Of a stretch of 64,000 bases of DNA, positions 3,001 to 64,000 are shown piece by piece. The notes beneath the pieces were generated by a model, which worked only from the letters and a program-made list of their open reading frames with translations, was not told where the DNA came from and made no database searches. Position 1 is the stretch's first letter. Each line of letters begins with the position of its first letter. This DNA comes from Nereocystis luetkeana (lineage: Eukaryota > Sar > Phaeophyceae > Laminariales > Laminariaceae): NCBI GenBank assembly GCA_031213475.1, contig JARUPZ010000007.1:1757457-1821456 (forward strand). Direction: 5' to 3'. The position numbers and the translations under genes were made by a program.

Positions 3001-6000
3001 GCAGTCCGAAAACCGAAAAAAAACGGTCGATAGAACAAACAATAAACTCGTTTGGGCTGGTTAGGTGTTACTTTGCTGGGTTCGCTTGCCCGGTGGCCTA
3101 CTTCTTTTTTTTATCTTTCAAGATCGTTTTTTTGTTCTTCGTTCTTACACGGTCGGTAGCCACGTACGAGTGGCGGGTAAGAGCAACGAACGCCTGCTGT
3201 GTTCTCCCTCGTCACTTTTCGCGACGACCCCCGTACTTTTAAGTATCACAATCCCGGAGGGGAGCCTTGTATGGCACTACCCACGTGCAGAGCTTTGTCC
3301 GAGCGTCGAGCGGCTGAGTAAACACTCGGTCGACTAGAAAGAACGTGACCTTCGTCGACTCGTGGGAATGAGTCGTCGACCTAAGAGAGCCAGAGATGGA
3401 CACAAGCTGTACTGCAAATAGCAACATAGATATTACCAGTACAAAGGCTTCCACCGAGGCTTCCACCGAGGCCTTCGAAGCATCTCAATGAAAAAACACC
3501 CCATTTTCCTCCCATGAGAACAGGCTTTCCGATGAAAAAATGACCATTTTGTTTCTTCGCAAGAGATGTATTTCCCTCGCGAGTCAAGTGTTCAACCTAC
3601 TGTAGAATACACAGCGTGAGCATCCACGCACAAGCACACGCACACGCACACGCACACGCACACACACCAAAAGAAAAACTCCCGCCAGGATAAAGAACAC
3701 CAGGCGAGAGACGGACGGATCCCATCTCGATCGGATCACGCCCCCGGACTGTGCCGAGAAGGTCGCTGGAAGCCGATCATCCCACCCCACCCCCACCACC
3801 GCCCACACCAAACAGGGGGTCGGACCTCGCAACGCACCTCTCGCTTGAGCTCGTAAACGTGGCCGATCTGCGACCAGATATCTCCACACCAGGCGGGGTC
3901 GTTCACCGCCTGCAATACGTCGTGCAGGATCTGCGCGGACGGGGCGCAAGGGCGGATGTGACAGGGGGGGTTCAGTAGGCAGAAACAACGAGGCAGGAGA
4001 GGGGAAGTAAAAGAAGGGGGACGGGTTGAGGTAGGTGGTAAGGGGGGGGGGGGGGGGGGGGGGGGTGATGGGAGGGGGAAGCCGTCCGGTGGCGCCGAAA
4101 AATGGAGACGTATTAAATAGAAGGAGACGGACGAGAGCACCAATGGCCCCGATCAGCACATTCACCCCATTCGGAACTCTCGAGTGAAGCCGGCAACCCG
4201 CTAGAGCCAGGAATAAGTACTCGTGCAGTAGTGCTCGAAAGGTGGAGTTGATTGTGACACTAAAGAAGCATACAGCGCGTACGTCACAGCCCGTACAGCG
4301 CATACACCACAGCACATACAGCGCATACACCATAGCACATACAGCGCATACACCAAAGCACATACAGCGCATACACCATAGCAAATACAGCACATACAGC
4401 GCATACATCGCAGCACATACCGCGCGTAAAACTACAGCACATACTGCGCATACACCAGATCACATATACCACCGCATATCCAGCGCATGCATCACAACAC
4501 ATACCGCGCATACCCCACATCACATACAGCAACATACAGCGCGTACATCACAACATACGCCGCATCGCATACAGCAACATACCCCGGTACACCACATACA
4601 GCACATACAGCGCGCATACATCACAACACACAGTGCACACCATCACAGCGCATACAAAACACATGCACCCTGTTGCCTGCCGCCGCAGCCCTCGCTCACC
4701 GTTAGCGCCTCGTCGAGCTTCCCCTGCTGCTTGTTGATGATGCCAACCCGGAAGCGAACCTGAACCCAAAAACCGGCAAAAGGACGACGAGGTGAAGGCG
4801 GGCCGTGTCAAGGGGAGGGGGAGGGGGGGGGGGGGGGGGGTCAAACCATCCCCGCATCCGCCCTCCCTGCTGGGCAACGAGAGAGAGAACGCGACGCTCT
4901 CTGCTTCATCACCCGCACGGTGTGAGGGGTGGCTCGGCTGGACGAGCGGGGGGTGTCGGCAATGCCTGGGAAAACATAGCAATCAGAACCAAACAAGGTG
5001 TTTTAAGCATACGGGGATAGCCCACACCTGTTTTTTTTTTGTTGTTGGAAATCTGAACGCTTTGCCTCTCCGAAATACCTGGTACCTGGTACCAAGGTAC
5101 TGCAGATAGTTTTTTTACGGAGAAAAGTAGCGATCATAACCAAAAATGAGGTCGATTGCATAGAGGGGAATATGAGATATTTACGGCCCATCGTTGGTTC
5201 CGATTATTGTATACGGACCTCCGTTGGGGTAATAAGCCACTTCGTGATCGAGCCCGAATAATAACAGCCGGAAAATGTCAAGAGCACCGTAAGAGAAACA
5301 AGGATACATATATCTACTCGTATACATATCAATAACAGGAACTAACGAAACGGATGAACGTGTGAGGTTGATGTGACATGGGATGCGAACGTTACTGTTG
5401 GCGGGGGGACGGGAAGAAAGGTTGGGGTGAGCGAGAGGCCCACCTCGTGATCGAGCTCGAAGTTAGGGTCCATCTTGAGGCACGCGTCGAACGCCTCGAT
5501 GGCGTGTCCGTAACTCCCATAGCAGTCGTACAAGAGTCCGATGCCGTACCAAAGACGCGCGTCCTGCGGTAAAAATCGACAGCAGCAGCAGCGAAGCAGC
5601 GGCAAGACTTGGGTATATAGCCCGCCCGAGCTCAACACTCTCTCATGTCGAACCTCAACCCTTCTACGTGCTGTAGGACCGCAGTCCCGTTAGGGGGAAA
5701 ATCCACTCAAACTCTCAGCAACTTATCCCCAAAAACGGGACCCTTCTGACTGCCTTTTTGCCCTCCAAGGCCAACGGTATAACCCCTGTTCCAGCAGTAG
5801 TACCGCACCGTGCGTGTACAGAAACCTAAATTACGGGTCTAACGCGAGGTGTGTTCGTTGATCATACTACAGCAGTAGTACCGCACCGTGCGTGTACAGA
5901 AACCTAAATTACGGGTCTAACGCGAGGTGTGTTTGTTGACCATACTACAACAGTAGTACCGCACCGTGCGTGTACAGAAACCTAAATTACGGGTCTAACG

Positions 6001-8141
6001 CGAGGTGTGTTCGTTGACCATACTACAAAAGTAGTACCGCACCGTGCGTGTACAGAAACCTAAATTACGGGTCTAACGCGAGGTGTGTTCGTTGATCGTT
6101 GACCATACCACGTGGCTGCGGCCCTCTTACGTATTAGAGAGAGAGAGGGTTATTCGGCTTAATCCTTTTGATACCGCAGACCCGTATTGGGGACAAACTA
6201 ACTACCAGGTACCATGGTATAAACTTGACTGCTTTGGCCCCGGGCCGGGGCTGCAGCCCTGACAGCATTGACACCGTGGAGGGGCATATGCAATGTAAAT
6301 CCACTCTTAGCGGCATATTAAATAGGACCTACGGTACATACAAAAACCTACATATTTCGCTAATTTTTACCAACAATATTTGGTCCTATTTACTATGCCC
6401 CCCCCCCCCGTAAAACAATATGCAAAAGGCCGTTATATTTTCGGACAGAGCGAAAACGTTTCATTTCATTTACTTGTTTACAAACTTCACCCTCCGGCGG
6501 ATTGATAAAAAAATAAAGCTTACACCGAAAGCCTCGGGACACGAGCCGACGATTCCCACCTTCGGGTTCGATATGTGGTAGAGGGCGTGCTGATACGCCG
6601 TGTATGAGTTCTGCAGGTCGTTGATCATGAGATAGCAGTACGCCAACTCTTCCCACGTGTGCCCATCCTTGTCGTCGAACGCTACCGCTTGCTGGAGGTA
6701 CTCCACCGCCTGGCCAGGTAGGGAGGGGTGGGGGTGGGGGTGGGGGTAAGGGTCGGGTGAGGGTAGGGGCGGGGGTGAAGGCATGACGAGGGCGGAAGGG
6801 GCGGGGTTGGAGGGGGGAGCGAGGGGAGAGATGGGAATGAGAGAGTGGGATGAAGGGGGCAGGGGCGGGGAGGCAGGCGCGAGTGAGCCACGAGTCCGGA
6901 CATCGATCAAGGAAACAAATCGAGCAAAAAACAGCCGTCGACTATAAAACAAACCACTACATCTCCACCGCGGCGCACGCAACCCCACAAAGTACAAAAC
7001 CTCCGATCCGGTCATGTCACAAGCGGTACAAAACCGCGGGGCAACACACATCAGCAGCAGCAGCAGCAGCAGCAGCAGCTTGCTTGCGCTAGCGCGTGGA
7101 GGCGCGCTGGGAAGACACCTCCCCCCAAGTCTCGCCCCCCATCTTCGACCTACGCCGAAGCGCTCCTCTTTGCCTGGCGCATCTCGGTGCCAACAAACGC
7201 AGCGGCTGCCTTCCAAACCAAAACATAAAAAAGCAAGGGTATTCCAAGAGACTTCAACTCTAAAAAGTAAAGATTTATTTTCAAAAACGAAATCGGGCGG
7301 GTAAAACTACTGCAGCACTCGCGAATCTTGTAGACGTGGACCCACGAGCTTTCAACGGTCACAACAGCGGTCGAGGGCGTCGCAGACCATGGGCCTGAAA
7401 AACCTCGATACTCCCCCTCCCCTAACCCCTCCCTTCCCCCCTCCGTCCCCTGTGTGCAAGGACCCGACTGCCTTGACCCGGGGTAAAACATAAGACCAGG
7501 CAGACCAAAGCACCGACAAAAAAATCGAGCGGGCATCCGTCGAATAACACCTCCCTCCTCCCCCGTTAAAGTTTCGAACGGTTTCCATTGCATCAAGACG
7601 CTTCTTTTTTTCCAAGGGTTTCCGTGATATCAGGACTCGAGGCGTTCTACCGCGGGGGTGGGTGATCGGTTGGTTGGCGTCTGGGGGACGACGCCAAAAC
7701 ATGCAGACCACTAAATTCTTGGGTTTAGCTCGAGCAACTCCAGCCTTCCACAAGGGAGTGAAAGCAATCGATTCATCCACGAATCAACCGACTCAGCAAC
7801 CACTCAATCAATAGACACATTAATCAATCAAAACATCAATCGATGAAGACATTACCCATCCTCCATCCGTTCAGCATCTACAAACCAGTCAATCCATCTC
7901 CACTCAAAATCAACCCGCCAACAAAATCCGCCATCATCGATTAACTGATCAACAAACCAACTCACAATCAACCAATCAATCCATCAGCCGATCGAAGGAT
8001 CAATTAATCAATCAATCAATCAATCAATCAATCCATCAATCAATCCATCAACAAACTTTCGGCCCCGTGGACGCTACAGCGACAACAAAACACCAAACAC
8101 CGCCACCAGCAGTAACATCAACAACAACAAAAAGACAACAA

Positions 8142-8173
<32 letters not shown>

Positions 8174-11100
8174 CGGTTTTGAACCAACGATAACGTCGGA
8201 GGGCGGCACAGGCGAGGGTCGGCTTACCGCTAATGATCAAGGATGACAGAACACTACTACTGATGTGTCCGGTATAGGTTGAGCCTTCTCCGGCTCTTGC
8301 CGAAAAAAAACGAACCAGACGAATTGTCGGGTAAAAAAACCCGTTTTTTTTTCCTTGAGCCGATTTTTAGCGACGAGAGCCGAATTCTGCTAAAACCCTA
8401 ATTTCCACTCGTCCAATGCAAGATACAAAACACGCCAGATGCTCGCCATTTCTCTATTTCTAACGAAAATTATTCGAAAGAAACAAAAGGTGGGAGCTGG
8501 CTGCATCACGGATTTTTTACGCCTGCTGGTCGATGAGGGCAGCGCTCTCCTGACGACGCACGCCGACCAAGTAGTGCCTTCTTCCAACACAGCTTAACCC
8601 ATTTCCCGTGTGAACATGCCGATTTTCAAGGCTTTGAGCCGATTACTATGTGTATGAGCCGAAAAGGCTGAAAATATTTTATTTTTCGTCAGGACTGTTC
8701 ACAGGTTAGGAGGTCTTCCAACATTTCACCGGTCGGCCCAGGAGGTCTTCAAAAACCTCACTCGTCGGGTCGGGGTCGCGTTAGGCACCCGACCCACGAG
8801 GTTTTTCGACCGGACGCATGAACAGCCCTGGCGTTTTCGGAGCCGAAAAAGTCGAAACATGCCTTCCCCGTGTGTTGCCCACAGGGCTCGCCGACAGGCT
8901 CAGGAACCCACCCCAGCGTATGTATCATATGACTATTAATATTAGTATCCTCGTTAACATATGTCTGGTGCCAGGTCTACGGTGTCTCATGTTGTGGTGC
9001 GTCTTTTTTTTTTGTCTCGTCTGTCGTTTTTTTTTTTCAGTTTAGCTCGGCCCGTCCATAGACGTGCGTGTCCGTCTGACTGTCAGCCTCGAGTCTCGAC
9101 CCGATACCTGTCTATCCGTATGTTTGTCCTGTCGGCCGGCCGCTAGAAACGCCGCAGGTTCATAGAAAACCCGCCGGTTCGCAAACCTCTACTTGAGCGT
9201 CTGGTCCCTCTTTCGATACTACCGTACAGAAACACCACTGCTGAAGTACCTCCATCCCAGACAAGATGATAGCGGTGCGGCGGGAAGGTGGGTGAGTGGG
9301 TAGTTGGGTGGGTGCCTTGTGGGTGGGTGCCTGTAGAATACAGCAGTGTGGCCCCTCGGCGCCAGTAAGCACTACAGCTGTGTGTCTACAAAATACTACA
9401 GGCTACCTGCTATATGCGATAAACCCCGGGTCACCGGCTGTGCCTGCTGGCCATGAACGGTCAGGCCGGAGGGACGAGGGAAAAGCCGGATGTGATAAAC
9501 CTTCGCATTATGATGCTAAAACGTACACTATTGATGGGTCGTGATCACATCACTGATAAAAGAGCCAGAACCGGGTACCTCAGGGTAGTCTTCGATGTCG
9601 CACATAATCCTGACGGGGCAAGCTACCCTTCATCTCTCGCGCCTTCACGATCATCATCATCATCATCACACTCCTCATCGCAACAGCCGTCAACATCATC
9701 GTCACCCCCACAATCGTCACAACAGCCATCTTCACCGTCCTCGCAGACGCACCCATACCGACGAACAATCATTACAACCACCGCCTTAATCAATATCAGT
9801 ACGGCCATATTACGGGGGGGAGGGGGGGGGGCATATTAAATACCTGGTAGGATCTACGGTACACAAAAAAAACTATATATTTCGACCAATATTTGGTCCC
9901 TATTTTCTACGGTCCCTCCGTAATACTACCCCCATTGTACTATTGCGGGGGGCCATAGTTAATAGGACCAAATATTGTTGGTAAAACTGGTTAAATATAT
10001 AGGCTTTTATGTATACCATAGGTACTATTAACTATGTCCCCCCGTACCACATGTAACCATGATCGTCACCACCAACATCATCATCATCATCATCAACATC
10101 GTCATCAAAAACATCTTCAGCATCATCAGTCATCGCAGTCTCGGCGGCGGGTGGCGCTCTACCGTGGCCCTTTTGGTTCGCTCTTTTCGAAGGGAGCAAC
10201 GATACCTGGCACTGCGGTTCGTGGCGCGTTCAGCGAGCGTGCCAATCCTAAAAGCGCCGCTGTGTCCCGCTCGAGGCAACGGAAGTTCATCGAAAGCACG
10301 AGCTGCGCCCTCCGTAACGTTTTTTTTTTTTTTTTTTCACGAAGGGCGTAGTTACAACAGCACCATGTTGGTCAAATCCGCACACTATTACGGGGGACCA
10401 TAGTTAATAGAACCCAAATATTGTTAGAATAAATGGTTAAATATATAGGTTTTTATGTATAACACAGGTCCTATTTACTATGGTCCCCCATAATAAGTAC
10501 CAGGTACTACACAATGTTGTGCAGGCCCCGGGATGGAGCCGGACGATCCAATCTTTGTGCTAGTTTCTTGACCCACACCGTTCTTCACATTGGGCGCCAA
10601 GTGGAGTACATACCAGGTAAATTGGTGTTTTGAGTAAATATTCTGCACATATACACCAGGTGCAAGATAGATACTACACCCAATATGCCAAAAACAAAAA
10701 AAAAAAACAGACATGTTTTTACCGGCACAGCACAGTCTGCGTGTACTGCTTCAGGTATACGAGTCGTAGCTCTGCAAGCAGTGGATGTGTAACCGCTGGT
10801 CTTGGCCATTGTGAAAGAAAACACCAGCCACAAAGCAAGAGTCTCGCATACATGGAAGGCCTGTTTACACGAAAGCAGCAAGTACGCGCTCCCGTCCGAC
10901 AAGTAGCAGCAGGGGCAGTGCAGGCTGCATAACCCAAGTAGACTGCCCCTGCTGCTGCTTGTCGGACAGGAGCGCGTACTTGCTGCTGTCAGCACACCAT
11001 TTTGTAAACGGTGCGTAATCTCCAGGTACCACGGAGTCTTCACCAAGTTAATCTCGAAATGTTAAGGACGGGTGGGTATCTCGAAATACACACCTGAACG

Positions 11101-14100
11101 GCCCTCACTTTGACGGACAGATCTATTAGTACCGCTGCACTATTAATAACAATACAGAGTAGTCTCCCCTACGTTGTTCTTCCATTCCAACGACACTTCG
11201 TACACAGTACGTTGTGACTCCCGCTGTTAAAAAAAAAAGTAACGTAAACTTAACGGAAGGCCGAGTACGTAACAGTTCGGAACGGCGCACTACACCCATA
11301 ATAGATAGCATCGGTTACCCCACGACCACGTTTTCCCATATCCTTGTAGTGCGTACCCTCGGAGCACTGAGTTTACTTGCACCCATGACGCACCTGACAC
11401 CATGTTACATACATACCTGCCTCCATCCGACATTCGAGATGCACCGGACGAAATTCGTCGAGATTCGAAAAGCCCGACAGAAAAAAGCACGACACAAAAC
11501 AGCAGGTAGGGCCGTGTGCGTTCGTTGGCTGACCACATGTAAGTCGCCGAAATCGTTGTCGAGACTAGATAGCTAGGTATTAGAGCTGCTCGAGTGCCGC
11601 AGTTTTCGCTGGGGGGGGGGGGGTTGCAACACGTCTGCAAAACCTCTGTGCGGTTGACCCGTCGCGTTTGCGACTCCACGAGTGGGTGGCATCGTACTAC
11701 TCATATTTATAAATGCGGTCTCCTTTTGGGGAACAAAACCACTCGAAATCCAAGTAGTTTGTCACCAAAGCGAGACTGCAATCTGCCTTAAAAGGGCCAA
11801 GTCAGTTATTAATACCCTGGTAGTTGGTTTTGCGTTGCCACGCAGCCAATAACTAGCCGTCTACGTCCAGCGAGCTCGCAGCCCAACGATGCAGAGCAGA
11901 GCAGCGGCATGGGGAGCCGCGAAGGCGGGGGCGCATCGCTCTCGCTCCGCTACTAGCCGCCACGACTTTTGCTTCGTATAAACACAAAATGGTTCTTAAC
12001 AGTATCGAGAAAGAAAAATGCTGCATTATTGGGTACATCCTCAGGTCAGGGGAGGGGAGCCCCCGCCAGGCACTACTGTTTCACCCTGCGCACAAGTAAA
12101 GATGATCTACAGATAGATCATCTGCAGATAGATCATCTGCAGACAGATCATCTACAGATAGATCCTCTAGATCCTCACTTGGCGCCGTGAGAGGTTGTGC
12201 AGGATCTGCTCGGTACAGATAAACTACAGGAAAAACGTGAGCATGTGCTTACAGTAGATCGTGCTGGCTTTTCGTGTCCCACCCGGCGAAACGAACCATC
12301 GATAATGCGTCCACTATCGGGAATAGATCTATATATCTGCCCCGAGGTGATCTAGAATCATCAACTGTGGTAAAACGTTTTGGCGAAAATGAGCAAAAAA
12401 TACAGGTGTGCCCTTCTCGTACATTTTACTAACAATATTTGATCGTATTTACTGTGGTCCCCCGTAATAGAAAAAATAGCGAAATATATACCAGGTACCA
12501 GGTACCTGGTAGGTTTTAGTGTCTACCGTAGGTCCTATTCAATGAGGTCCCCCGCAATATATCGTCATACGGCGCGTTCACACGCCACACACGACGGCTG
12601 TCAACCTTTTCAGTCAAGCAGTCCCGTTTGGAGGACGAACTACTTAGAATTTGAGTGGTTTGACCCCACAACGGGACTGGCATCCTAAAAGGGGGTAAGA
12701 GCACGCTGTTCACGGGTCAGACAAGAAAAACGCCGGTCAGGTCGGGTCGGGTCGGGTCGGTTCGGTTCGGTTCGGGTCGGGCTCCCTCGACCCGTGATAC
12801 CTCGCAAACCCCCTGCCCCGACCCGACCCGACCCGACCCGACCCGACCCATGAGTTTTTGATGACCTACTGGCCCAACGGGTCGGGTCATTAATCGTGAA
12901 AAGTCCTACCACGTTTTAATTTTGTCCATACGCCGGGCCATTTTGGGCGCGTCAAGCCCTCTTCACGATCCTGATAAACTATTACGGGGAACCATTGTAA
13001 GTAGGACCAAATATTGTGAGTAAAAATAGGTACATATATAGTTTTTTGTGTGTACCATAGGTCCTACTTACTATGGTCCCCCGTAATAGCTTTTTCGTGT
13101 AGGGGACGGCCAGTCAAGCGGTCAAACCGCGGTCTCTTGAGGCCTCCATATACCAGTTTTGGTGTAGGGGGCGGTCAGTCAAGCGGTCAATCCGTGGTCT
13201 CCTGAGGCCTTCATATACCAGCTTCGGTGTAGGGGGCGGTCAGTCAAGGGGTTAAACCACGGTCTGTTGAGGCCTTAAAATACCAGCTTCAGCGTCGGGG
13301 GCGGTCGTTCAAGCGGTCAAACCGCGGGCTCTCGAGGCCCCAATATACTAGCGATAGTGTCGGGGGCGGTCAGTCAAGGGTTCAGTCAAACCGCGGTCTC
13401 TTTGGGCCCTAGCATACTAGATTCAGCGTCAGGGACGGTCAAAGGGTTCAGTGAAAAACCGCGGTCTACCAGCCTTTCGCCATGAAAAAGGATCACACCA
13501 ACAACGACAACAACCGCGGCGGTAAACATAAAAACATCCATCACACCGACCGAAAACATAACCCCAGTTTTCATATTCACATCAAGAGCCCAAAGGGGGA
13601 CTACATGTCCGGCCAAAGATGGTACCAACCCACCGAACAGAACCCACCGATGGTAACACAACACACCCCACTCCAAACGAATTCCCGAGCAAATTTTCCA
13701 ACACCGGGGAGGGAGGAGGAGGGAGAGAGCGCGAACGCCGAAACGCGATACAGCGCGCGTTCCCATCACGTGGGAAACAATCTCTCGACAGAACGACGAG
13801 ACCTCACCCAGAGCGCAAGAAAAAACGCCGAGCGATGCGCAAGCACTCGTTTTTCCTCCCCAAGAAATATCTCGACGACCACGAGCTCTTTTCCAAAAGC
13901 CCCCGTTCACAATTGGTCGGCGCTCTCCCGACGACGACACGAGATCCTTCCGAGGCCACTACTTACGGGGGACCGTAGTTAATAGGACCAAATATTGCTA
14001 GAAAAAATGGTTAAATATGTAGCCTTTAATGTATACCATAGGTCCTATTAACTATGGTCCCCCGGTATTTTTTTCTTCCCCCCGTTGTCAGTGTGTACAT

Positions 14101-17100
14101 ATGCGCCACGTCACCGTCACCCGCCCTTGTTAACCCCTTTAGAACCGCAGTCCCGTTGTGGGGACAAACCAGTCAAATTCTAAGTGGTTTGTCCCCAAAA
14201 CGGAACTGCGGTCCTAAAAGGGTTGAGAGAGGGTCGCGACCAGAAAACTCCCGTCTCATCGCGAGGTTCTCTCTTTATCTTGCGTGCCACCCACATACCA
14301 GGTACCTGGTATAATTTAGGGTGGACCTGCTGCAACGCTTTGAGGGAGCATAAACCGTAAAATAACACCACGTATGACAGCAATTGCCACTAAGTTTCAA
14401 CCATTTTAGAAATAACTGCAGTCCCGTGTTGGGGGCGGATCGCGAAAGTTCTGAGCAGTTTGGCCCCAAAAGAGGAACTGCGGTTCTATTGATAAGAGGG
14501 TTACAACATACCTGGTAGGTAGATACTTCGTTGCGTACAAACAAACTGTAGTTTTTCTATTTGTATCGTAAAACCAATCCAAAACCAACTATTACGGGGG
14601 GACCATAGTTAACAGGACCTACGGTATACACAAAAACCTACCAGGTATATATTTAACCCCTTTTTTACTAACAATATTTGGTCCTATTAACTATGGTCCA
14701 ATAGTGCATACCCCGCACGTATAAAAATAGCACGCGATCGAGGTATCACGCGCTAAAACCTTGCAATTATCAGTGCTGAGGGGGGGGGGGGGAATCGCAT
14801 CTTTCGTATCTGAGTCTCCGCACATAAGTACTGTAGTACTACACCGTATTGATAGTATGATACTCACCACATGGTACAAAAACAAGCTACATTCGAAGCC
14901 ATTAATCGTAAGAAACAAAAACTCGCCGATACGCACTATATGTCGGTCGTTTTTCGACAGCAGCAAGCAAGTGTAGCTTTGACTGCCAACGAACGACCTG
15001 AGACGGGCGAGAGACTCTTTGTGCGCTTGCCGGAGGAGTGCGGCCATTCGGTTGGACGTATTCGAAATGGTTGTCTTATTAACCCCTTTAGTACCGCGGT
15101 CCCGATTTGGGGACAAACCAGCCTAATTCCAAGTGAGTTGTCCCCATAACGGGACTGGGGTACTAAAAGGGTTAATAGGAGAGGCAACCGCTACTTGGGT
15201 ACCCTACCGACGGTTTCACCAGAAAAAAAAAAACTTACCCGTATCTCGCATCTAGACTCGGAAACAATACCGAACGTTAAATGATGCACGTGAAGATACA
15301 GGACGCAGACAGTCACGCCAGGCGGACACAACGGCGCTCGAGACCGGGGGCACACGTCACCACCTCGCGAGAGATCTTCCGCTTCTCGCTTGCTTCTGCT
15401 AGACCCTGCCAAGCTGTCAGGTGTCAACCTGTCAGGACCTGCTCCAATTCGTGTGACCTCGGGTACGACATACATCTCTGGTAGAAACGAAACGGGGTTG
15501 GAAACTACCAGGTACCGGTATAATATAGACGAATAAATACACGGTACCAAGTAGACGTATTACCTGGTACTATTAATAGTATGATACAAGGTACACTTGA
15601 TATCATGCAAGTCCCCACCGATATTTTCGTCTGTTTTACTCGCGTTGTCGTATCGGTAAATTCCTACTGCTGCTGTACCGGTGCCTTTTACAGCAGTTTA
15701 CTGCTTTTTACGCGTGTGCGTCTACTCTAAAAAATAGATGTGTATGATAACCTGGCGGTATACCATGGGCATAAGCATACGCACGGCTTTTGTATTTACG
15801 GACATACCCGGTAGTATATAACAGTTGGTACACGCGACGTAACAACAAGCACCTTCGTACGGCTATGCTATCACGCTATCACACATATCCATGCATACGT
15901 ACGGCTTGACTTTTGGGTTGACGGCTTTGAGGGTTGGCATGTCGGCATCGCCTGCATGTCCGAGCAGACCTGGCGACTGGACCTTGTCGCGGGGAGATAT
16001 ACCTCCAGCAGATTAAGTAAAACCACTCTGGGCGGTAATATAAGGACCGCCTATACATTAATATGAAGACCAAACCATTGTTATACTTACGCCTACAGTA
16101 GAGCAGTATAACTTAACAATAAATACCGCTAGATTGTATTTACCAAATTTGCAGACAGGAAACCACAAAAGAGACCAAGGCTTCGCACCCCGGACTGATC
16201 GCCATCAGTACATACAGCAGTACCTGTCGATAATCTACTATTATTAATAGTATGCTTGTAAATCAAAATCTACTCTAACGAGGTCTTGAGCAAGATCTGT
16301 GCATGATCTGTGCATGCAGTACAGATCCAACCCAGTAAACACGAGCTATAGATCAGCGATAGAAGAAAGGAGACCCGCTCACAACAACGTCGGAACTGAA
16401 AACAGAATATCAGCGGGTTGGTTTTTTTTCTCGTCAGAAACTACAACAAACACGCTTGTTTTCAGTTTGGTCTCACTTAAATTTAGAAAACCCCGCCCCA
16501 ACCCTGTCTTAGGGACTCGAATAAAAAAATGGGTGTCGTTTTTTTCTGTATCCTGGGCTATAATACACCAGGGTATATATTATATACCAGGTATGTGTGT
16601 ATATACCTATGTGTATCATTCAAGATTCTACTGCTTACACCCGCCAATATAAGCTACTGCTGTCTGTATCCTAGTACTACCTGATACAGATCTGGAACAT
16701 AACTGGTCTTGAAATATCAACTATCTACACATCATTGACCCTTGAGGACTGCGGCCCCGTCTTGGGGACAAATCGCTAAAGTTTCAAGCACTTTGTCCCC
16801 CACAACGGGACTGACCGCAGTCCCGTTTTGGGGACAAATTACTTATAATTCAGGTGAATTGTCCCCAAAACGGGACTGCGAATCTAAAGGGGTCAAGTGG
16901 AGATCGATTCATCTGTCCGATACGTGCAGGGTTTCGAGCCGCGCTCGGCATTGTGGCACAACTCGAAAAAAAACATCCGGTGCATTTTTTTTGGCGACCT
17001 ATATATATATTTATATATACCAGGTATATAGCAGCGCCGCGTACCATTAATATTAACAATCGAATCTACACATGACACCGTACGTATGTATCTGGCAATA

Positions 17101-20728: not shown

Positions 20729-23700
20729 TATATATACCAGGTATATATATACTGCTACGAGTATATATGCTTCGAAGCAGAAGACGATGTAACACATTTA
20801 TACCTGGTGAAGAGCTAGGATGTAAATCGAGATGGGTCGTAATTGAATAACTTCGCAAAGCCTGTGTGGCAGCATAGTGACAACGGAGCCCGTATCTCTC
20901 GCAGAAAGGAGAGTCACAGCGAACACTGGGCGGTCTGGATGACGACGAGTAGAAAAAACGTACTGAAAATATGCACGCCGTGCTGCTTTATATGTAATGT
21001 GAGTAACACATACTACGGCGGGCTGTGAAAGCAGCATTGAATGTAGTGACTTACTGCTTCATGCCATCGTACTGCTTTGTATGTAATGTCAAGAACACAC
21101 ACCATGGCGGGCTGTGACAGCAGCACTAAATGTAGTGACTAACTGCTGCCTGTCATGATAGCATAATAGCCCACAGCAGCAGTACGCTACGTACGATTGC
21201 TGGACTTCCTGTAGGTGTTTCCCTTTCATGCGTTCCAAAATTGAGACCGGTCACCCTTCGACTGCGCAGCGTCAACGTCAAGCTTCGTTGGGGGATACAA
21301 AAACTCAAAAGAAACCGCACCAAAAAAAATACCTGGTACAACGCACCGGTATACTTTCAATACGAGTACTGTTTTCAATAGTAACAGGAGCAGAACCGGC
21401 CGCGGCGAGAATCAGGGCGAGAAACTGCGCTCCCGCGACGAAACGCCTCATGACCGTTGTCAACAGCAGCAGCAGCAGCAGCAGCAGTGGCGCCGGCGAG
21501 GTTCCGGGCGAGAAACTGCGCTCCCGCGACGAAACGCCTCGTGAAAAACCTACAGAAACAGAAATTTCGCACACCGCTCCCTCCTCTTCCTGAATACGTC
21601 TCCCTCGTCCTCCAAAACATCCTTCCCCCAATTACAAAAACCAATGGTTGCCACCACCAACAAACGACAAACGACCTGCGTGTGTGCGGTATACCGCGTC
21701 TGTGTGTCTTCGCATTACACCGTTTTTTCTACCGGTCGACATCCAGTCCAGCACAACCAGTGTCTGTGCGTGCCGATTCTTCAATCCTAGAGAACACATG
21801 CGCTCCGCGGTCACGATACTATTACGGGGGACCATAGTTAACCCTTTTAGAACCGCAGTCCCGTTTTGGGGACAAACCACTCAATTTTCAAGTAGTTTGT
21901 CCCCAAAACGGGACTGCGGTTCTGAAGGGGTTAACAGGACCTATGGCATACATAAAACACTATTTGTTTAACCATTTTTACCAACAATGTTTGGTCCTGT
22001 TAACTATGCCCCCCCGTAATACGACACAGAGACACTGCATGGCTACGGGGTAGGCAGTGAGCAGAATAGACGAAGGCAAAGTATTGCCACGTCATATGAC
22101 AGAAGTACCGGACACGACGGACACGACGCAGACATCCTATGAAAGAGAAAAAAGACGAATGGCATGAAGAAAAACAAATCGAAGAAAAAAAAAATCACAA
22201 CAGGAGCAGGGTCTCGCCCATCCCGAAGGAGGTGTGGCAGACGATACACGACGAGCGCAAGAAACAACATCACCACATATAACCAGAGGAACACGGAGAA
22301 CACGAGTAAACGCAGGCAACCCGGAGGACGAAGGGGAAAAAAAAGGTACACGCTGCCGCAGCAGTTCGTGGTACGAGTATACCTGGTATAGAGTGTAGAC
22401 AGATTCTACCTATCAATACTATTAGCAGTCGGTATACTGGTACTTGAATAAAAGGCCCCCCCTGCCGCCTTCTGCCCGTCAACCGTGCCCAAACCCCAAA
22501 GAATATGCGTTTTACGGTACTGATACTCGTACTGTAAAACGAAGCTGACGCTGCGAAGAAAAGTAGGAATCCGACAGCACCTTCGGTCCTATCTCTCTCA
22601 AAAGCGGAAGCAGATTTCGTTACCAACGTACGGGACAAACGACATATCTCTGTGTGTGTTCATCGCATTGAACCCTTCTTTCTACCGGTCGACATCCAGC
22701 GCAACCAGTGTCCCCGCTGACCTTTGAACCCTACTCCTGTAGAGAGGTTACAACGCTGTGGTACAAAAGCTACCAGGTACGACACAAGAAAAACTACTGC
22801 TGTACATAGGAGCAGCAGTACTTATGCAGTAAGGGCCGTTTTTAACGACGCCCAAACAGTTAGTAAAAAGCTTGCTAAATTTCCATGTTATGGATTTTTT
22901 TACTTGCCAAAATAGCAAAAAACTTGCCAAAGTTTTTTATACATATTTCCGGTCTGCTTCGTTGGCAAGTTTATGGAAAGTGATATTTGCTATTTTATTT
23001 GCTATTTTAGCCCAATAACGCCAACGCAAGGTTGTACAAACAGATCACCCCACGACGCCCGACGCTAGACTCGCTCTAACTTGTGTAGTAGAGGGGGATA
23101 CGAAGGATACCCGGTGGCATTGATCACAGCAATGATAGGCTGGCTACACAGGCCGTGAGCCCCGTGTGGAAGCAACATGTGGGTGCCGTTTTGTGCGGGG
23201 GCTAAAACAGAATAACAAAAAGCAGCCGTTCCAGCTTTTCCCAGGGGATTTTGGAGGACTGGAAGGACTGCCGACCTCTGAGGTACGTGGGCTGTGCCTG
23301 AAGTCCTTTCTGCGGCAGCATTTACTCCACAGAGAGTGTCGGCGTGCCGTCGGCTATCATACCTGCTCCTGCTGCTGTGAGGGGTTTGAATAAAATCTGA
23401 GGGCGTTTTGATGCGAATATTTGCCAAATATTGCCACATACCTGGTATGTAGTGTTTCACGGTAGGTTTTGGCAACTTTTAGGAAAAAAATGTCTTGCCA
23501 GAATGGAAGATTTTTGCTATTTCATTCGGTCGTTAAAAACGGCCCCATGCAGAGTAGACACTGCAACGCCTTGTTAGCATACTGGATACGGCAGGCGCGA
23601 CGTACACATCCTATGAAAGAAGGGAAACAAAATAAACAAAAGTACCAGGTAAAATATTAATAGTTCGGTGGCTTGAGTTGCTTGGTTGACAGTCTGACGG

Positions 23701-41580: not shown

Positions 41581-41973
41581 CGAGGGTAAAACCTCTTACG
41601 ATTTACCTGGTATGCTGGAAAGTGAAAGTGAGGATGAAAAAAAACAAAAAAAATAATTAAAAAAAATAGAGATTGTCTGGGATTTCTCAATCTTGGGGAG
41701 GCCCTCATACCTGGTAGATTTTTGTTGGTGCCTGCCTCTTTTCACGAAGGTAACGATTCGTGTCAATCGCCGAAAAAGAAACTCATTGGGCGAATGCAAG
41801 AATGATGATAGGAATGAGAAGTGCGACAGATGCCTTGAAGTGGTAAAAAAACCTAACGGTATACTCGTATAGCTACTGCTGCATTGGCCGTTCTTTTTTC
41901 CTGCTGTGTTGTTCAGCAATACGTAGTCTTGGAAATAGCTAATACTACTTCGAAACGTATTCATTCACTATTG

Positions 41974-46639: not shown

Positions 46640-48350
46640 AGAAACAGGTGTTTGATCAGCTAAAGAACGGCTGCAGCCATCCCGAATGGTGTCGCTCTTT
46701 TTTTGGCGCCGTCAAGATTAGAAGCTCGCTCGCATACATCCTTGAACGAACACCGGCCGGAACCAAACCGACAACTTTTTTGCTACTTTTTCGCTGCTGT
46801 GCCGCTGCTGTCTGGTACTTGGCACCTCTTGTCTCGTCTATTGTTGTTTATCCCCCTGTTGTAGAACACTTTTTGTGTACGATTCGGGAAATCTCGCACA
46901 AAAGGTATTTTTACTATCGGCGCTTCAGTGGTTGAGGTATGCCAGTTTCAGCTATTAATAGCCACCTCGTTTGGCTGTCGGCTATTAATTTTAATAATAG
47001 TATAGGCCCACCAATAAGAAAGTGCCCAAAAGGAACGTAATGCTCACTTTTTTGTCGAACCTACGAGGATTGGGTCAAGAAAAGCGGCTCAGTGATGACG
47101 TATACACTAAACCCTACCTGGTCTATAATAGCCTATGCTCAAGGTTGTTTGAAGATGGCGCCTCAATAAGAGTCTCAGGCTTGCCCAGAGTAGGCGTTCC
47201 TTGTTGGCGGGCCCATACTCTGCACGATCCCAGCGCTACTCGCAGTGCTTTTACTGCTGTGTAGTACACCGTCTGAACCGCATGATTCACGCCTTTTTCG
47301 GCCTTATTTTTCGAAATGGATGCGAACTGGATGATGTGTCGACCGTATTCCGTACCAGGTAGACAGCCTTGAAATGGATGCTTCGTTTTACGATACGTAA
47401 GTGGTATCATCGTGGTTTTTCGTTTGTTTGAAACCGCAGATCCAATCGGCGTTTTTTGTTTTTTGTTTTATGTTTTGCTCGATTTCTTCTTCCCCAACAA
47501 GTGAATCCAGTTTTAGTTCGCGAAAGGCACTGCTGTGGTGGCATCGTGTTGTCTTTACCTTTCTTCTACTCGTAAGCTATCCAACATCGCCTGATTAATA
47601 GAGCTGAGCGACTAAAGCCCGAACGTTACTACCGACTACATTCCCTACTAGTAGTACTGCTCTGCGTTGGTCTCTACTTCTAAATCCTCAAGGCCGTTCT
47701 CGTTACTCAGGTGGCTAATAATCGTTGTTGTTACTCAAAATTAAGCGTTCTCATTGCTCAATAATCTAGCGTTGTTGCTGCTGTTCCTGTCTTATTTGGT
47801 TTCGTTGTTGTTGTCCTGTTGTGCACCAGGTATGTTCGTGTCATTGTCTACGAGGATGCCTACTTGTGCTTTGATATTTTGATGTTGACCCCGGCCCCAC
47901 AGGCCAGGTGTTTGTTATTCAGACAGCCTGAGAAGAAGAACCAGCACAGCTTGAGAGAAGAATCAGCACATGACCACAGATGGATACCGGTACCTTTTTG
48001 GAACGGATATGTCCCTCCACCTCCCACCCTCACGAAAACTTGGGGTTGAAATGAAGCCTCTCAGCACCGCTAGAGACTCCACCCGAGATTATTGCGCAAC
48101 TACGTTGTTACCGCCGCATCGACCTCTGCTATATATTGTACCAGGTATAATTCAACATGGCATGCGTTTATCAGAGAGAACCGAGCGGCTATGGTTCAAT
48201 GTGGCGTGGCTTTTATCAGGCAGTACCGTCTAAACACTTCAGGAAACGGTATAGTCCGTTTGTTGGTACTCTTCGCTTCGGAATCAATGTGTGATATCAA
48301 CAACCACCAATTAGCTGAGAGGGTGGGCCGGGCCGTCTTTGCCTGAACTC
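46640..48350. other. No gene recognised
   Basis: AT/GC-mixed intergenic-looking DNA with motif copies at 47353 and 48139 and TATTAATA at 46953. No domain-bearing frame is seen. Confidence 0.3.
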
Positions 48351-48459
48351 TATTACGGGGGACCATAGTTAATAGGACCAAATATTGTAAGTAAAAATGG
48401 TGAAATATATAGGTTTTTATGTATAACATAGGTCCTATTAACTATGGTCCCCCGTAATA
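48351..48459. mobile_element. MITE A copy
   Basis: TA-TTACGGGGGACCATAG.. to ..CTATGGTCCCCCGTAA-TA; near consensus. Confidence 0.92.
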
Positions 48460-48883
48460 ACTCTCCGTTGTGGTTCGTAGTACAGAGTACTGCTGTAGAC
48501 ACATATGTACATGTGTAGACGTGGTCGCAGACTCTTTTCTTTTACGGAAATGACGAGGTGCGGCTCCCCGTTCTTTTCTCTTGGCATCCTTGGCGAACCT
48601 CTGGAACCAATCTCGAGCTTCTCGTTTGGTTCCATATTTTTTGTTCGATATCGTTGAGGCATGCTTTGCCTCGACTCTAATGGAAGTGTTGGGTTAAAAT
48701 GAGGTCTAGGCTGCTTCAGTCCACCCGTGCTTGACCGTTATTTTGTGACCTTAACTCCGTTACGGGGTCAAGCGTGTACCTGATGGCCCTCGTGATATAA
48801 CTTCTCGCAAGCCTTGTTTTTTTTTCGATGCTCCCGATGTGCCTCTTGACGTTAAAAGTGCGAGATTGTTGCTAAAATATAAG

Positions 48884-53197: not shown

Positions 53198-53203
53198 TAC
53201 TCG

Positions 53204-53321
53204 TATTGCGGGGGGGCATAGTAAATAGGACCAAATATTGTCAGTAAAAACAGTGAAATATATAGTTTTTTTTATATACCGTAGGTCCTACCAGGTATTT
53301 AATATGCCCCCCCCCGGAATA
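53204..53321. mobile_element. MITE A copy with a TACCAGGTA insertion
   Basis: GGTCCTA|CCAGGTA|TTTAATATGCC; same site as in the copy at 9808 when both are placed in one orientation. Confidence 0.9.
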
Positions 53322-53737: not shown

Positions 53738-53901
53738 ACGTGAGGAGACAGCACTGTCACCCCTTGACAGACGACAGCAACTTTGCCTTGACATGCCTTG
53801 ACTGACACCAAACTGCTACCTGGTAGGTTCTATTGCGGAGCACTCGGCCGTGCACCCTGGACAGCGCACGATTTGCCTTGCTTGATATGTCTCCCGACGC
53901 G
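53738..53901 (-). repeat. Dispersed repeat D copy 3 with a TACCTGGTA insertion
   Basis: The reverse complement reads GAACCTA|CCAGGTA|GCAGTTTGG where copies 34600 and 60655 read AAACCTA|GTGGTGTGG and AAACCTA|GTAGTGTGG. Confidence 0.82.
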
Positions 53902-57674: not shown

Positions 57675-57894
57675 TCGGACATAATTATTCTTCGGGCATG
57701 AAGCATGAAGCACCCGTTCTTCTTGCTGGCCTCTCCTTGCTGCCCTTTGCACGCCTGATATTGCACTCTTACTGACTAAATTACGGGGGACTTGAGTAAT
57801 TAGGACCAAATATTGTTTGTAAAAATAGGTAAATATATACCTGGTAGGTTTTTGTGTGCATCGTAGGTCCTATTTAGCAAGGTTGTGTTCGGTA

Positions 57895-58245
57895 AGGTAC
57901 CGGTATGCTCGGTACCGGTACGGACATCGTACCGAACGTACCGAACTTCCCGGTACCGGTATGGACGACGTACCGAACATACCGAACTTCTCGGTACCGG
58001 TATGGAGATCTTACTGAACATACCGAACATCTCGGTACCGGTACGGATTGTTATACCGGCACCACCGGTACCGGTACGAACTGCGTACCGAACGTACCGA
58101 ACTTCCCGGTACCGGTATGGACCTTGTACCGAACGTACCGAAGTCCTCGGTACCGGTATGGAGATCATACCGAAGGTACCGAACTTCTCGGTATGGTATG
58201 GAAGCCCGTACCGGTACCGGTACCGGTGATACCGGCGATACCGGT
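57895..58245. repeat. Subterminal CGGTACCGGTATGG array of the hAT element, left
   Basis: About seven units of 50-54 bp (CGGTACCGGTATGGA.. then GTACCGAACATACCGAACTT). Confidence 0.92.
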
Positions 58246-58246
58246 G

Positions 58247-58726: not shown

Positions 58727-58839
58727 GAGGCGGCTGGCACGCGCCAGTGTACCGAGCGAAGAGGGTAGTGTACCGAGCGAAGAGGCTACGGCTGTGCTGC
58801 TGGTGCTGTGAGTGTGTGGCGGTATCGGGTAAATACCAT

Positions 58840-59275
58840 GCCTAACTTCCCGATCATCCCGGTACCGGTATTCTCGGTACTGGTATACGCTCGGTACCGG
58901 TATGAACATCGTACCGAACTACCGGTATGCTCGGTACCGGTACGGACGACGTACCGAATGTACCGAACTTCCCGGTACCGGTATGGACCTCGTACCGAAC
59001 GTACCGAACTTCTCGGTACCGGTATGGAGATCATACCGAACATACCGAACATCTCGTTACCGGTACGGATTGTTGTACCGGCACCACCGGTACCGGTACG
59101 AACTGCGTACCGAACGTACCGAACTTCCCGGTACCGGTATGGACCTCGTACCGAACGTACCGAAGTCCTCGGTACCGGTATGGAGATCATACCGAAGGTA
59201 CCGAACTTCTCGGTACCGGTATACCGGAGGTACATTACCGCTGGTACGCCTCGGTATGTACCTTACCGAACACAA
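58840..59275. repeat. Subterminal CGGTACCGGTATGG array of the hAT element, right
   Basis: About eight units in the same orientation as the left array, so the two arrays are direct, not inverted, relative to each other. Confidence 0.92.
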
Positions 59276-60844: not shown

Positions 60845-61085
60845 CTGCTGGGTGTGTGTGTGGTCTTCTTTCTACCTGTCGACATCCAACACAACCAGTG
60901 TCCGTGCCGATTCTTCAATCCTAGAAGAGATACAACAAGTTCTGTGGTCACAAATCTACGCCACAGAGATACTACGTTGCCACGTGTGCAGTATGCAGTG
61001 AGCACAGCAGTGGGCAATGCAATGCCATGTCATCCTACTATTAATAGATACGACAGGCACGACATACACATTCTATAAAACATAG
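60845..61085 (+). repeat. Dispersed repeat C, most complete copy, with TATTAATA
   Basis: CTTCTTTCTACCTGTCGACA.., CTACGCCACAGAGATACTAC, GTGCAGTATGCAGTGAGC.., CATCCTAC-TATTAATA-GATACGACAGG, ending ACATTCTATAAAA. TATTAATA sits where the 26250 copy has MITE A. Confidence 0.85.
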
Positions 61086-61433
61086 AAACGAAAGGAAACA
61101 ATCAAAGAGAAAGCAAATACATACCTGGTACCAGGGTAGTATTAATAGACTAATCGAAAGAGAAGAAGAGTGTACTCGTATTATGCATGTAACGGCCTTT
61201 CTGCTCTGTTTGCGTCACCTGTACTCTCTTTCGTTTCAGAATTATTTCGTTCCCTCTCGTCCTTTTTGTTTGCATTTTTTCTGGGCTGGCGTGCGTTTGT
61301 TGTGTCCTCGTGCCAAGTGCCAAGTACAAGGAGTACCCGGTTCCTGTTGGCACCTCTCTCACTTTACGTACCAACACGCGATTGTTGTTGCTTCGGTTTT
61401 TCCCTGCCTCTCAGTCTGTGACCGGATAATTAC

Positions 61434-61826: not shown

Positions 61827-62026
61827 GTTTTTTTTTTTTTTTTTTTTTTGCTCATCCCATTCATTATCTTCGCATATCTTCTTCTCTCTCTCCTTCCAAC
61901 TCGTAACTCTAATCCGGGGTCACATAGCAGGCTCTTCTCCCCCCTTCCCGCTACGGTACGTGCCTTCATCTTTATCGCGAGAATATTTCAGCCTTTTCTT
62001 CCCTCGTCGACTCGCATCGAATTATA
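61827..62026 (-). mobile_element. SINE right monomer, truncated, minus strand
   Basis: Poly(T) at 61827-61849, then the complement of the right unit up to CTCGCATCGAATT. The remaining part and the head are missing. Confidence 0.82.
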
Positions 62027-62123: not shown

Positions 62124-62362
62124 TATTACGGGGGACCATAGTTAATAGGACCAAACATTGTTATTAATATTACGGGGGGCCATAGTTAACAGGACCAAAT
62201 ATTGTTAGTAAAAATGGTTTAACATATAGGCTTTTATGTGTACCATAGGTCCTGTTAACTATGGCCCCCCGTAATAGTAAAAATGGTTAAATATACCTGG
62301 TATACCAGGTATATATTTTTATGTATACCATAGGTCCTATTATCTATGGTCCCCCGCGATAG
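62124..62362. mobile_element. MITE A copy interrupted by another MITE A
   Basis: The outer left part ends ..ACATTGTTA and the right part resumes GTAAAAATGGTTAAATATA; the inner copy occupies 62170-62274. The right part also holds TA|CCTGGTA|TA|CCAGGTA|TATATTTTTATG. Confidence 0.9.
62168..62276. mobile_element. Inner MITE A copy, TA duplication
   Basis: TA-TTACGGGGGGCCATAG.. to ..CTATGGCCCCCCGTAA-TA within the MITE A word GTTAGTAAAAATGG. This fixes the target duplication as TA. Its left TA has become TATTAATA (62162-62169). Confidence 0.92.
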
Positions 62363-63052: not shown

Positions 63053-63354
63053 TTGTACCTGTGGCAGCATGCATGTATCACACAACAGCAGAGACTCCGA
63101 GCTCTACAGATCGCAAGGTTCGATAAAAAAGCTACTTAAGAGGAGGAAGGAAGCCACAGCAGTACAGCGCGGACGAAACTACCGAGCACGCGTGGTGTTG
63201 CTTCCTGTGCTGCTAGCGGGCGGCAGGCGTTTATAGCGTTTTAGCCAGCGGGTTGCAGCACGCGCCCTGCACTGCTCGTGTGCTGTTCGTTGTCCGTGGT
63301 GTCTGGGTTACGTACATGCTGTAAAAAGAAGTTGAAGAAAAAGTGTGGGAAAAA

Positions 63355-63434
63355 AAGTAGACACGATCTCTGCAAAGGATCGAACTCGCGCCTTCAAGTC
63401 CAACATCGGGCATCGTGACCATTTGACCGTATCA
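63355..63434 (-). tRNA. tRNA-like relic, probably a pseudogene or SINE head
   Basis: On minus, GATCTTT and AGAGATC can pair as a 7-bp acceptor stem, with TGAT/GTCA as a D stem and GAGTTCGATCC as a B box. The anticodon and T stems are imperfect, so no anticodon is assigned. A poly(T)-rich stretch follows. Confidence 0.35.
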
Positions 63435-64000
63435 CGAAAGATCTCTGTTACCTGGTATTATTTTCAGCGACGCGCGACACACCGGGCGCACATGCACGGC
63501 ACAGCAGAAGAGAGAGAGGTGGTAGATGACAAATGACGGGTCGTAGCCATAGATAGAGCAGCCCGCCACAGCAGCAGTGCACCGCACTTGCGTGGTGTTT
63601 CCGGCCGCGGGTTATTCTGTTGGGCGCGGTTCTAACGATGTTTCGTGTTGTCCTGGACTGTATTTGCTGTCTACAGTAGGTGTCTGGTGTGTGCTCGCGG
63701 TAAGAAACACCAAACATTGGGGATAGAAGGACCGTTGGCCTATAATCATTTAATCCAAACGGTGCTTTCATTCCGCCCATATTTAGCGTGGCATAAGAGC
63801 AACAGCAAAGATGGGGTAGATGGTGGATGCGGACCGCAGGCTCCGATAAAGACAACTAGCCACGGCAGTATAAACGAAAATGGGCGCGTCAGACATGCGC
63901 AACAGTGTTGCCTGCTGGTGATTCATGGGCGGCAGCGTTGTGACGCTGTGCTCTCTGCCTGTTGTCCGTTGCTTGGTACATGTCTGGGCTGTGTGCTCGT

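What the first reader, a model, noticed from the sequence alone, without database searches (positions are those of the whole stretch)
5076..63457. TACCWGGTA: a hyper-abundant 7-bp insertion at TA sites
The 9-mer TACCAGGTA (reverse complement TACCTGGTA) occurs about 60 times by manual count; roughly 0.5 is expected in 64 kb at equal base use. It is not a shared flanking repeat, because flanks differ. In three unrelated repeat families, copies with and without it differ by exactly 7 bp at a TA: MITE A (14590, 9808, 57838), repeat C (22771) and repeat D (53817). The form TA-CCWGG-TA, palindromic apart from the central A/T, is what remains when a TA-targeting (Tc1/mariner-like) transposon whose ends begin CC(A/T)GG is excised with 5-nt overhangs: the mismatched centre resolves to A or T. 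No such element is in the window. Alternatives are a self-spreading micro-insertion or a repair-templated insertion.
Basis: partly seen in the sequence, partly recalled or inferred. Interest (0 to 1): 0.92.

Follow-up and report, generated by a model that had tools for sequence, protein, structure and literature searches.

The report
Transposon scars flooding an alga's genome
A brown alga's genome carries a nine-letter word (TACCAGGTA or TACCTGGTA) about a hundred times more often than a control word, most likely because a jumping DNA element, not yet found, has left a seven-letter scar each time it left a site.

Summary
TACCWGGTA occurs 60 times in the window (about 1 expected under an order-3 Markov model) and 182,395 times in the 465-Mb genome, against 1,744 for the reversed control. 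The genome is a brown alga's. Of 15 window sites with a homologous copy spanning the site, 8 have a copy lacking exactly 7 bp at a TA. Repeat C at 22771 is not confirmed.

The excision-scar reading is best supported. Flanks keep a palindromic target preference around the TA, seen on each side separately. Two other TA-anchored words behave as scars of known elements here: TATTAATA has the flank logo of MITE A, whose ends are TT...AA, and TACWGTA resembles a pogo-like element starting CAG, though the two matrices are not cleanly separable. A longer scar, CCAGGG, occurs mainly in one direction (62:2; 10:1), so the unit has a polarity.

No parent element was found in about 359 kb.

The parts
5076..63457 (.). 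All 60 TACCWGGTA sites (starts): 5076, 5083, 6203, 9841, 10498, 10611, 12489, 12496, 12503, 14296, 14303, 14509, 14639, 15506, 15561, 16585, 17018, 20424, 20691, 20735, 21330, 22380, 22771, 23439, 23643, 25425, 25973, 28643, 28726, 28830, 34418, 34431, 34445, 34452, 35907, 37944, 37951, 38223, 39175, 41156, 41604, 41708, 47353, 48139, 53289, 53817, 55548, 55698, 55774, 56134, 57838, 59508, 59843, 61122, 61547, 62042, 62055, 62294, 62303, 63449
57838..57846 (.). Site inside a MITE A copy (57780-57874) at its hot TA (TAAATATA|TA|GGTTTTT); 24 empty and 2 filled hits
14639..14647 (.). Same hot TA in the MITE A copy 14590-14699; 26 empty and 3 filled hits
12489..12511 (.). Triple unit TACCAGGTACCAGGTACCTGGTA at the hot TA of the MITE A copy 12424-12559
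62294..62311 (.). Two units, TACCTGGTATACCAGGTA, beside the hot TA of a MITE A copy within 62124-62356
9841..9849 (.). Site at another TA of MITE A (AATA|GGACC); 3 empty and 2 filled hits
53289..53297 (.). Same second TA in the MITE A copy 53199-53290; 6 empty and 2 filled hits
53817..53825 (.). Repeat D site; two copies lacking exactly 7 bp (60789-60670, 34721-34611)
23439..23447 (.). Site with an empty homologue in L036 (3352-3249)
41604..41612 (.). Site with one exact 7-bp empty homologue
5076..5099 (.). Chain of adjacent scars TACCTGGTACCTGGTACCAAGGTA
11807..11822 (.). Mixed chain TATTAATACCCTGGTA: a TTAA scar abutting the CCCTGG variant
61122..61138 (.). TACCTGGTACCAGGGTA: standard unit next to the longer CCAGGG variant
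48343..48462 (+). MITE A copy without the motif (query for the copy survey); ends TA-TTACGGGGG...CCCCCGTAA-TA
61039..61046 (.). TATTAATA insertion at TA, the second scar type, absent from a homologous copy

Best explanation
Each TACCWGGTA is the scar left when a TA-targeting cut-and-paste DNA transposon (Tc1/mariner/pogo type) left its site. The element inserts at a TA that sits in a preferred, roughly palindromic setting (W W A N N W N R-TA-Y N W N N T W W), duplicates the TA, and on leaving keeps a few end nucleotides in the host, so TA becomes TA-CCWGG-TA (+7 bp). Shown: the exact 7-bp insertion at TA, the flank preference on both sides, the directional longer variant, chains with other TA scars, and two comparison scar/element pairs in the same genome. 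Inferred: that the parent is a transposon whose ends begin CCA (probably CCAGGG), that 5-nt self-annealing overhangs or a 3+2-nt joining made the core, and that the scar is itself a good target, which favours arrays. The parent is now rare, very diverged or lost.
For: Abundance: 182,395 against 1,744. Insertion: 8 of 15 testable window sites have an exact 7-bp empty hit; 8 of the 18 seven-bp insertion places in a survey not started from the motif are this word; MITE A copies carry it at more than one TA while 23 of 33 extents lack it.

Target preference: at 97 isolated sites, left and right flanks tested separately against all TAs (10 positions, uncorrected) give -8 p=9e-4 and 5e-3, -7 A/T p=2e-5 and 7e-10, -6 A p=3e-9 and 8e-4, -3 A/T p=6e-4 and 2e-3. 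At -1 (T depleted) only the right side is significant (left p=0.08, right p=5e-4). Held-out flanks average percentile 0.73 (98 half-flanks).

Comparison 1: TATTAATA (93,112 genome-wide against 10,689 reversed) has the flank logo T-A-C|TA of MITE A's own insertion sites (z 7.6), and MITE A's first and last two bases are TT and AA. Comparison 2: TACWGTA sites favour C at -1 (0.47); 5 of 8 TA-flanked ends of a pogo-like element starting CAGTACCGGCC have C there (z 3.7). The CCWGG matrix scores the two families at z 1.5 and -0.5, so its parent is a different element.

Polarity: of 100 half-sites listed, 62 are TACCAGGGT and 2 TACCTGGGT; TACCAGGGTA 10, TACCTGGGTA 1 in 334,581 bp. The scar as left flank of a TA scores at percentile 0.90-0.93; MITE A's hot TA at 1.000. 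Mixed chains, e.g. TACCAGGTATTAATA and TACAGCAGTACCAGGTA.

Literature: Sleeping Beauty leaves TAC(A/T)GTA (PMC3432063, passages seen).
Against: No parent was found. No TA-flanked inverted-repeat element with CCWGG ends appeared in the window and L001-L049 (358,653 bp), apart from rows made of motif arrays or larger inverted repeats; one search printed at most five rows per group and forty of 150. Behind 35 half-sites with good flanks, 8 fall into three groups sharing downstream sequence (L059/L068; L060/L065/L078; L076/L077/L079); I took these as ordinary repeats because their upstream letters are alike too, without further test. This design also leaves out ends continuing CCWGG-T or CCWGG-NA. 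The one candidate, L011:7-2144, fell: its inverted repeat continues past the TA. DDE_3 gave 0 matches among 30 candidates, its control ringing in 3 of 14 genomes; Transposase_1 gave 0 but its control rang nowhere.

The two comparisons are not fully specific: the TACWGTA matrix scores MITE A ends as high (z 7.7) as the TATTAATA matrix does (z 7.6), both sharing C at -1; the matrix from TACAGCAGTA/TACTGCTGTA sites gives 4.2; the TATTAATA matrix gives pogo ends 2.4.

A 5-nt core is longer than the 2-4 bp described for Tc1/mariner footprints (PMC7913693 passage). Clustering (37 of 134 sites within 30 bp of another) seems more than a mild target preference alone would give. Mixed runs are ordered A then T in 5 of 5 runs, although the opposite order exists 1,856 times genome-wide. 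No strains were compared.
Confidence: 0.75

Rival explanations
1. A self-spreading micro-insertion without a parent element: a TA-directed enzyme, for example a domesticated transposase, adds a fixed 7-bp unit directly.
For: No parent element was found although scars occur about every 2.5 kb. The unit is uniform: 144 CCWGG against few near variants in 334,581 bp.
Against: I know of no enzyme that does this (recalled). Two other scar types in the same genome match real elements in end letters and flank preference, with the limits told above. Variants such as CCAGGG, CCGG and CCATGG look like joining variation.
Confidence: 0.09
2. Repair-templated or slippage insertion: breaks at TA are filled from a common template, and arrays grow by 7-bp slippage.
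For: Arrays exist (a 7-unit run at L026:5603) and 10 of 15 adjacent pairs are in the same orientation.
Against: Slippage cannot start a single copy, and 120 of 129 runs are single. Template filling does not predict a palindromic preference extending to -7/-8 on both sides or exact empty TAs. Mixed-orientation pairs (5 of 15) and mixed chains with other scars argue against pure duplication.
Confidence: 0.07
3. A functional or selected site, such as a protein-binding palindrome or a HIP1-like word, kept by selection or biased mutation rather than inserted.
For: A palindromic, hyper-abundant 9-mer resembles HIP1 in cyanobacteria (recalled, not tested).
Against: In repeat copies it is an added 7 bp, not substitutions. 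One-mismatch neighbours exist as expected from decay (107 in 264 kb, against 38 for the neighbours of the reversed control).
Confidence: 0.03
4. The motif is the end of a surviving high-copy MITE or of a long repeat rather than a scar.
For: CCWGG half-sites exist inside some repeats, for example TACCAGGCGGATTAG...; 8 of 35 read half-sites fall into three groups with shared downstream sequence.
Against: 45 of 60 window sites have no spanning homologue. The other 27 of the 35 half-sites share no downstream sequence at the same offset.
Confidence: 0.02

Closest known systems
Sleeping Beauty (Tc1/mariner) excision footprint TAC(A/T)GTA
   Same: TA-anchored, near-palindromic, with an ambiguous A/T centre (PMC3432063 passages); a net insertion at the TA target
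   Different: 3-nt core (+5 bp) against a 5-nt core (+7 bp) here; here the parent is unknown and the scar word occurs 182,395 times
pogo superfamily footprints (Passer, 0-4 bp, PMC9976928 passages)
   Same: TA target (recalled for pogo); pogo-like DDE_1 matches are present in this genome, one family with ends CAGTACCGGCC whose flanks fit the TACWGTA scar (8 ends)
   Different: No pogo element with CCA... ends was found; core longer than reported for Passer
MITE A of this window and its scar TATTAATA
   Same: TA target; scar = TA + two end letters from each side + TA; flanks of scar and element agree
   Different: Target preference TAC|TA differs from that of CCWGG; the MITE is still abundant (33 copies of at least 60 bp in the surveyed sequence)
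ISY100/IS630 and Tc1/mariner cleavage 2-3 nt inside the 5' ends (PMC2170065 passages)
   Same: Offset cuts explain why end nucleotides stay behind at a TA
   Different: A self-annealing 5-nt overhang would need a longer offset than the 2-3 nt described there

Membership tests
Tc1/mariner-pogo excision footprint | Extra bases between two TAs at a site that has an empty TA allele or paralogue | tested here: met
   8 of 15 testable window sites; 8 of 18 seven-bp insertion places
Tc1/mariner-pogo excision footprint | Palindromic preference around the target TA | tested here: met
   Left and right flanks separately significant at -8, -7, -6 and -3 (uncorrected); at -1 only the right side
Tc1/mariner-pogo excision footprint | Footprint letters equal the terminal letters of an identified element | tested here: not met
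   No element with CCWGG ends found; met for TATTAATA/MITE A and consistent for TACWGTA/pogo
Tc1/mariner-pogo excision footprint | Core of the size described (0-4 bp; overhang 2-3 nt) | tested here: not met
   Core is 5 bp; published ranges from passages
Tc1/mariner-pogo transposon (parent) | DDE/D transposase in the genome able to act at TA | tested here: inconclusive
   DDE_1 28 matches; DDE_3 0, control 3 of 14; Transposase_1 0 with a silent control; IS630 model NF033545 did not complete
Tc1/mariner-pogo transposon (parent) | Polymorphic presence between strains | not testable with these tools
   No relatives of this genome are held
Satellite or minisatellite | Copies mainly in head-to-tail arrays | tested here: not met
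   120 of 129 runs are single units

The most novel reading that the evidence does not exclude
A parentless 7-bp insertion engine: a TA-directed, transposase-derived enzyme (or a transposon living almost only as circles or rare copies) writes an oriented CCAGG unit at preferred TAs. Each unit rebuilds the preferred target (T-A-C-C-W-G-G|TA), so the mark seeds its own further spread. About 1.28 Mb of the genome (182,395 x 7 bp) would be written this way.
Probability: 0.1. Interest if true: 0.95.

Novelty: new variant of a known kind. Interest (0 to 1): 0.8.

Why it matters
If the scar reading is right, a genome keeps a countable record of transposon departures, of the order of 180,000 sites for one family (arrays and later duplications are included in that count), whose source is nearly or wholly gone. 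The flanks preserve the lost transposase's target preference and the scars suggest its end letters, so an unseen element can be described. Scars of several kinds sit in one genome with differing flank preferences, which makes long-standing questions about excision rate, scar repair and small-indel origin directly countable. If instead there is no parent, a new kind of spreading micro-insertion would be at hand.

Tried and rejected
Candidate source L011:7-2144 (perfect inverted repeats starting CCAGG at TA) was rejected: the repeat continues outward for hundreds of bases and a related copy in L018 also continues, so the motif lies inside a large inverted duplication. The TACCAGGCGGATTAG family was rejected as an element end because its upstream flank is conserved too. 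DDE_3 and Transposase_1 searches gave nothing. Inverted-end scans of the loci gave no CCWGG element (printed lists were cut). A scan of viral contigs for the doubled motif gave 9 stretches, which I took as chance and did not read. The mismatch-resolution argument was dropped because A and T are strands of one unit. MITE B (the D4/D6/D9 repeats) has TTAA before CCC(T/C)TTTTAG; piggyBac-like is my recollection of that target; it was dropped as a source. TACCGGTA was not counted as strong support: in the window it sits partly in a GGTACC-type satellite, and it is not among the enriched words of the 200-kb sample. In one search the reversed control of the half-site pattern was larger (18,099 + 18,268) than the pattern (1,451 + 1,497), probably because the reversed pattern holds GGWCCAT, which MITE A carries; I used that call only for places and for the split by next letters.

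Not answered: TACCAGGTACCTGGTA, TACCTGGGTA (76, 77, 80, 83, 85, 86, 91, 112, 124), NF033545, a DNA search; and first tries of calls later answered.

Literature: the searches showed, in the rows listed, no paper on this motif or on genome-wide footprint floods. One search found the plain string in 119 papers and listed 10, none by title about this; the other 109 were not seen. The library holds open-licence papers only.


Full report
What was checked. The 9-mer TACCWGGTA occurs 60 times in the window. Markov models of order 1-3 expect about one. The whole genome holds 182,395 copies against 1,744 of the reversed control. Twenty 10-kb stretches at preset places on five large contigs gave 74 copies in 200 kb. 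The centre is A or T: in the window 60 such sites against 1 with C or G. The genome has 465,085,209 bases in 1,987 contigs. A TPR gene on the minus strand of the window matches brown algae: Discosporangium 82% identity over 97% of the query region, Choristocarpus 84% over 97%, Ectocarpus siliculosus 99% over 58%, Hapterophycus 100% over 26%; the yellow-green alga Tribonema is at 69%.

It is an insertion. Of 60 window sites, 15 have a homologous copy spanning the site in the window or fetched loci, and 8 of these have a hit lacking exactly 7 bp; the other 7 show only filled hits or other gap sizes. In MITE A (33 copies of at least 60 bp in window plus L009-L049) the motif sits at the TA of TAAATATA|TA|GGTTTT in four copies (three units in tandem in one of them) and beside it in a fifth (two units), and at other TAs in others; 10 of the 33 extents show the motif, one of them (10382-10496) just outside the element. 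A survey that did not start from the motif compared all repeat copies: 127 distinct insertion places of 3-16 bp, 18 of 7 bp, 8 of those TA-CCWGG-TA, and two TA-TTAA-TA among twelve of 6 bp (a first version, counted some places twice).

The flanks carry a target preference. For 97 isolated sites the left and the right flank, tested separately against all TAs, both favour A/T at -8 and -7, A at -6 and A/T at -3; at -1 T is depleted, significantly on the right side only (tests uncorrected; counts). A matrix trained on half the sites puts held-out flanks at mean percentile 0.73. The scar itself, TACCAGG or TACCTGG left of a TA, scores at 0.93 or 0.90, and MITE A's hot TA at 1.000. So a scar is an above-average target, which would help to explain why 37 of 134 sites lie within 30 bp of another, although clustering looks stronger than that preference alone.

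Comparisons in the same genome. TATTAATA is the second TA-anchored word: 93,112 copies against 10,689 of its reverse. Its flanks read T-A-C before the TA (0.45, 0.51, 0.56; 120 half-flanks), and MITE A's own insertion sites read T-A-C (0.56, 0.68, 0.61; 41 ends). MITE A begins TT and ends AA, so its departure leaving two letters per side gives TA-TTAA-TA. TACWGTA sites favour C at -1 (0.47). A pogo-like element with ends CAGTACCGGCC has C there in 5 of 8 TA-flanked ends, and the TACWGTA matrix scores those ends at z 3.7. These matches have limits: the TACWGTA matrix scores MITE A ends at z 7.7, as high as the TATTAATA matrix (7.6), because both favour C at -1, and the TATTAATA matrix gives the eight pogo ends 2.4. 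The CCWGG matrix scores both families near background (1.5, -0.5), so CCWGG belongs to another element. Scars of different kinds also abut each other, for example TACCAGGTATTAATA (L013:9809), TACAGCAGTACCAGGTA (L022:5522) and TATTAATACCCTGGTA (window 11807). This is expected if several elements share TA as target.

Polarity. Because the core is its own reverse complement except at the centre, A and T only tell the strand (59 and 61 among 120 single runs); they say nothing about mismatch repair. A longer variant does break the symmetry. Of the 100 half-sites listed with good flanks (of 1,451 + 1,497 in all), 62 read TACCAGGGT and 2 TACCTGGGT. Of the four such half-sites fetched, both TACCAGGGT and one of the two TACCTGGGT are followed by A. 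In 334,581 bp TACCAGGGTA occurs 10 times and TACCTGGGTA once. The unit therefore has a direction, CCA then GG(G). Either the parent's ends begin CCAGGG and 5- or 6-nt overhangs anneal, or one end begins CCA and the other CCC and 3+2 or 3+3 letters are joined. I cannot tell these apart.

The missing parent. No TA-flanked inverted-repeat element with CCWGG ends was found in the window and L001-L049, 358,653 bp in all, though the printed lists were cut. Zero in 334,581 bp would put a rough 95% ceiling near 4,200 copies genome-wide, loose because many loci are short. Of 35 half-sites with good flanks that were read, 27 share no downstream sequence at the same offset; 8 fall into three groups that I took for ordinary repeats, since their upstream letters are alike too. 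This test leaves out ends continuing with T, or with A two bases on. The apparent source in L011 proved to be part of a larger inverted duplication. DDE_1 matches are present (28); DDE_3 gave none, its control ringing in 3 of 14 genomes; Transposase_1 gave none, with a control that rang nowhere. One-mismatch neighbours of the motif (107 against 134 exact in 264 kb; 38 for the neighbours of the reversed control) suggest a few per cent divergence, so the wave is probably not ancient and a source may survive somewhere. The pogo-like family offers a partial precedent: in the 334,581 bp TACWGTA exceeds expectation (133 against 42), while ends of the CAG element were seen only in loci fetched by their transposase.

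Judgement. The excision-scar explanation fits the positive observations and has two comparisons in the same genome; what it lacks is the parent. I rate it 0.75. It works like a Tc1/mariner-pogo footprint; membership is not established, because the terminal letters were not matched to an element and the 5-bp core exceeds the published 0-4 bp (passages). Results against it: no parent, the A-then-T order of 5 of 5 mixed runs in the sample (the other order occurs 1,856 times genome-wide; the comparison count did not complete), clustering beyond what target preference seems to give, and the limited specificity of the comparisons.

Noticed in passing
window 14127-14249, 21835-21957, 41971-42093 and further D4/D6/D9 copies: A high-copy MITE whose ends read TTAA-CCC(T/C)TTTTAG in most of the 18 ends printed; piggyBac-like target is my recollection.
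   Followed up: partly
window 17850-18195, 24829-25170, 29973-30215, 36569-36811, 44751-45104, 61828-62023: A young SINE-like family (copies 87-98% alike) with a tRNA-like head and an A-rich tail as read by eye.
   Followed up: no
window 1-600: Long array of degenerate GGGTA/GGGTAAG units, resembling telomeric repeats (recalled) although the window lies inside contig C7.
   Followed up: no
window 57857-59256: A 41-bp GGTACC/CCGG-type satellite in two blocks, which inflates TACCGGTA counts.
   Followed up: partly
L026:5603-5653: A seven-unit run in the order AAAAATT; mixed runs in the sample always go A then T (5 of 5), unexplained.
   Followed up: partly
genome sample, TACGAGTA/TACTCGTA and TACAGCAGTA/TACTGCTGTA: Two more enriched TA-anchored words (about 6-fold and 15-fold over an order-2 model), possibly scars of further elements; TACGAGTA has the form I recall for Minos (recalled, not checked).
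   Followed up: partly
window minus strand, exons near 5440-5560, 6560-6700 and 39200-40105: A long-intron TPR gene matching brown algal proteins; Ssn6/Cyc8-like is my recollection.
   Followed up: partly
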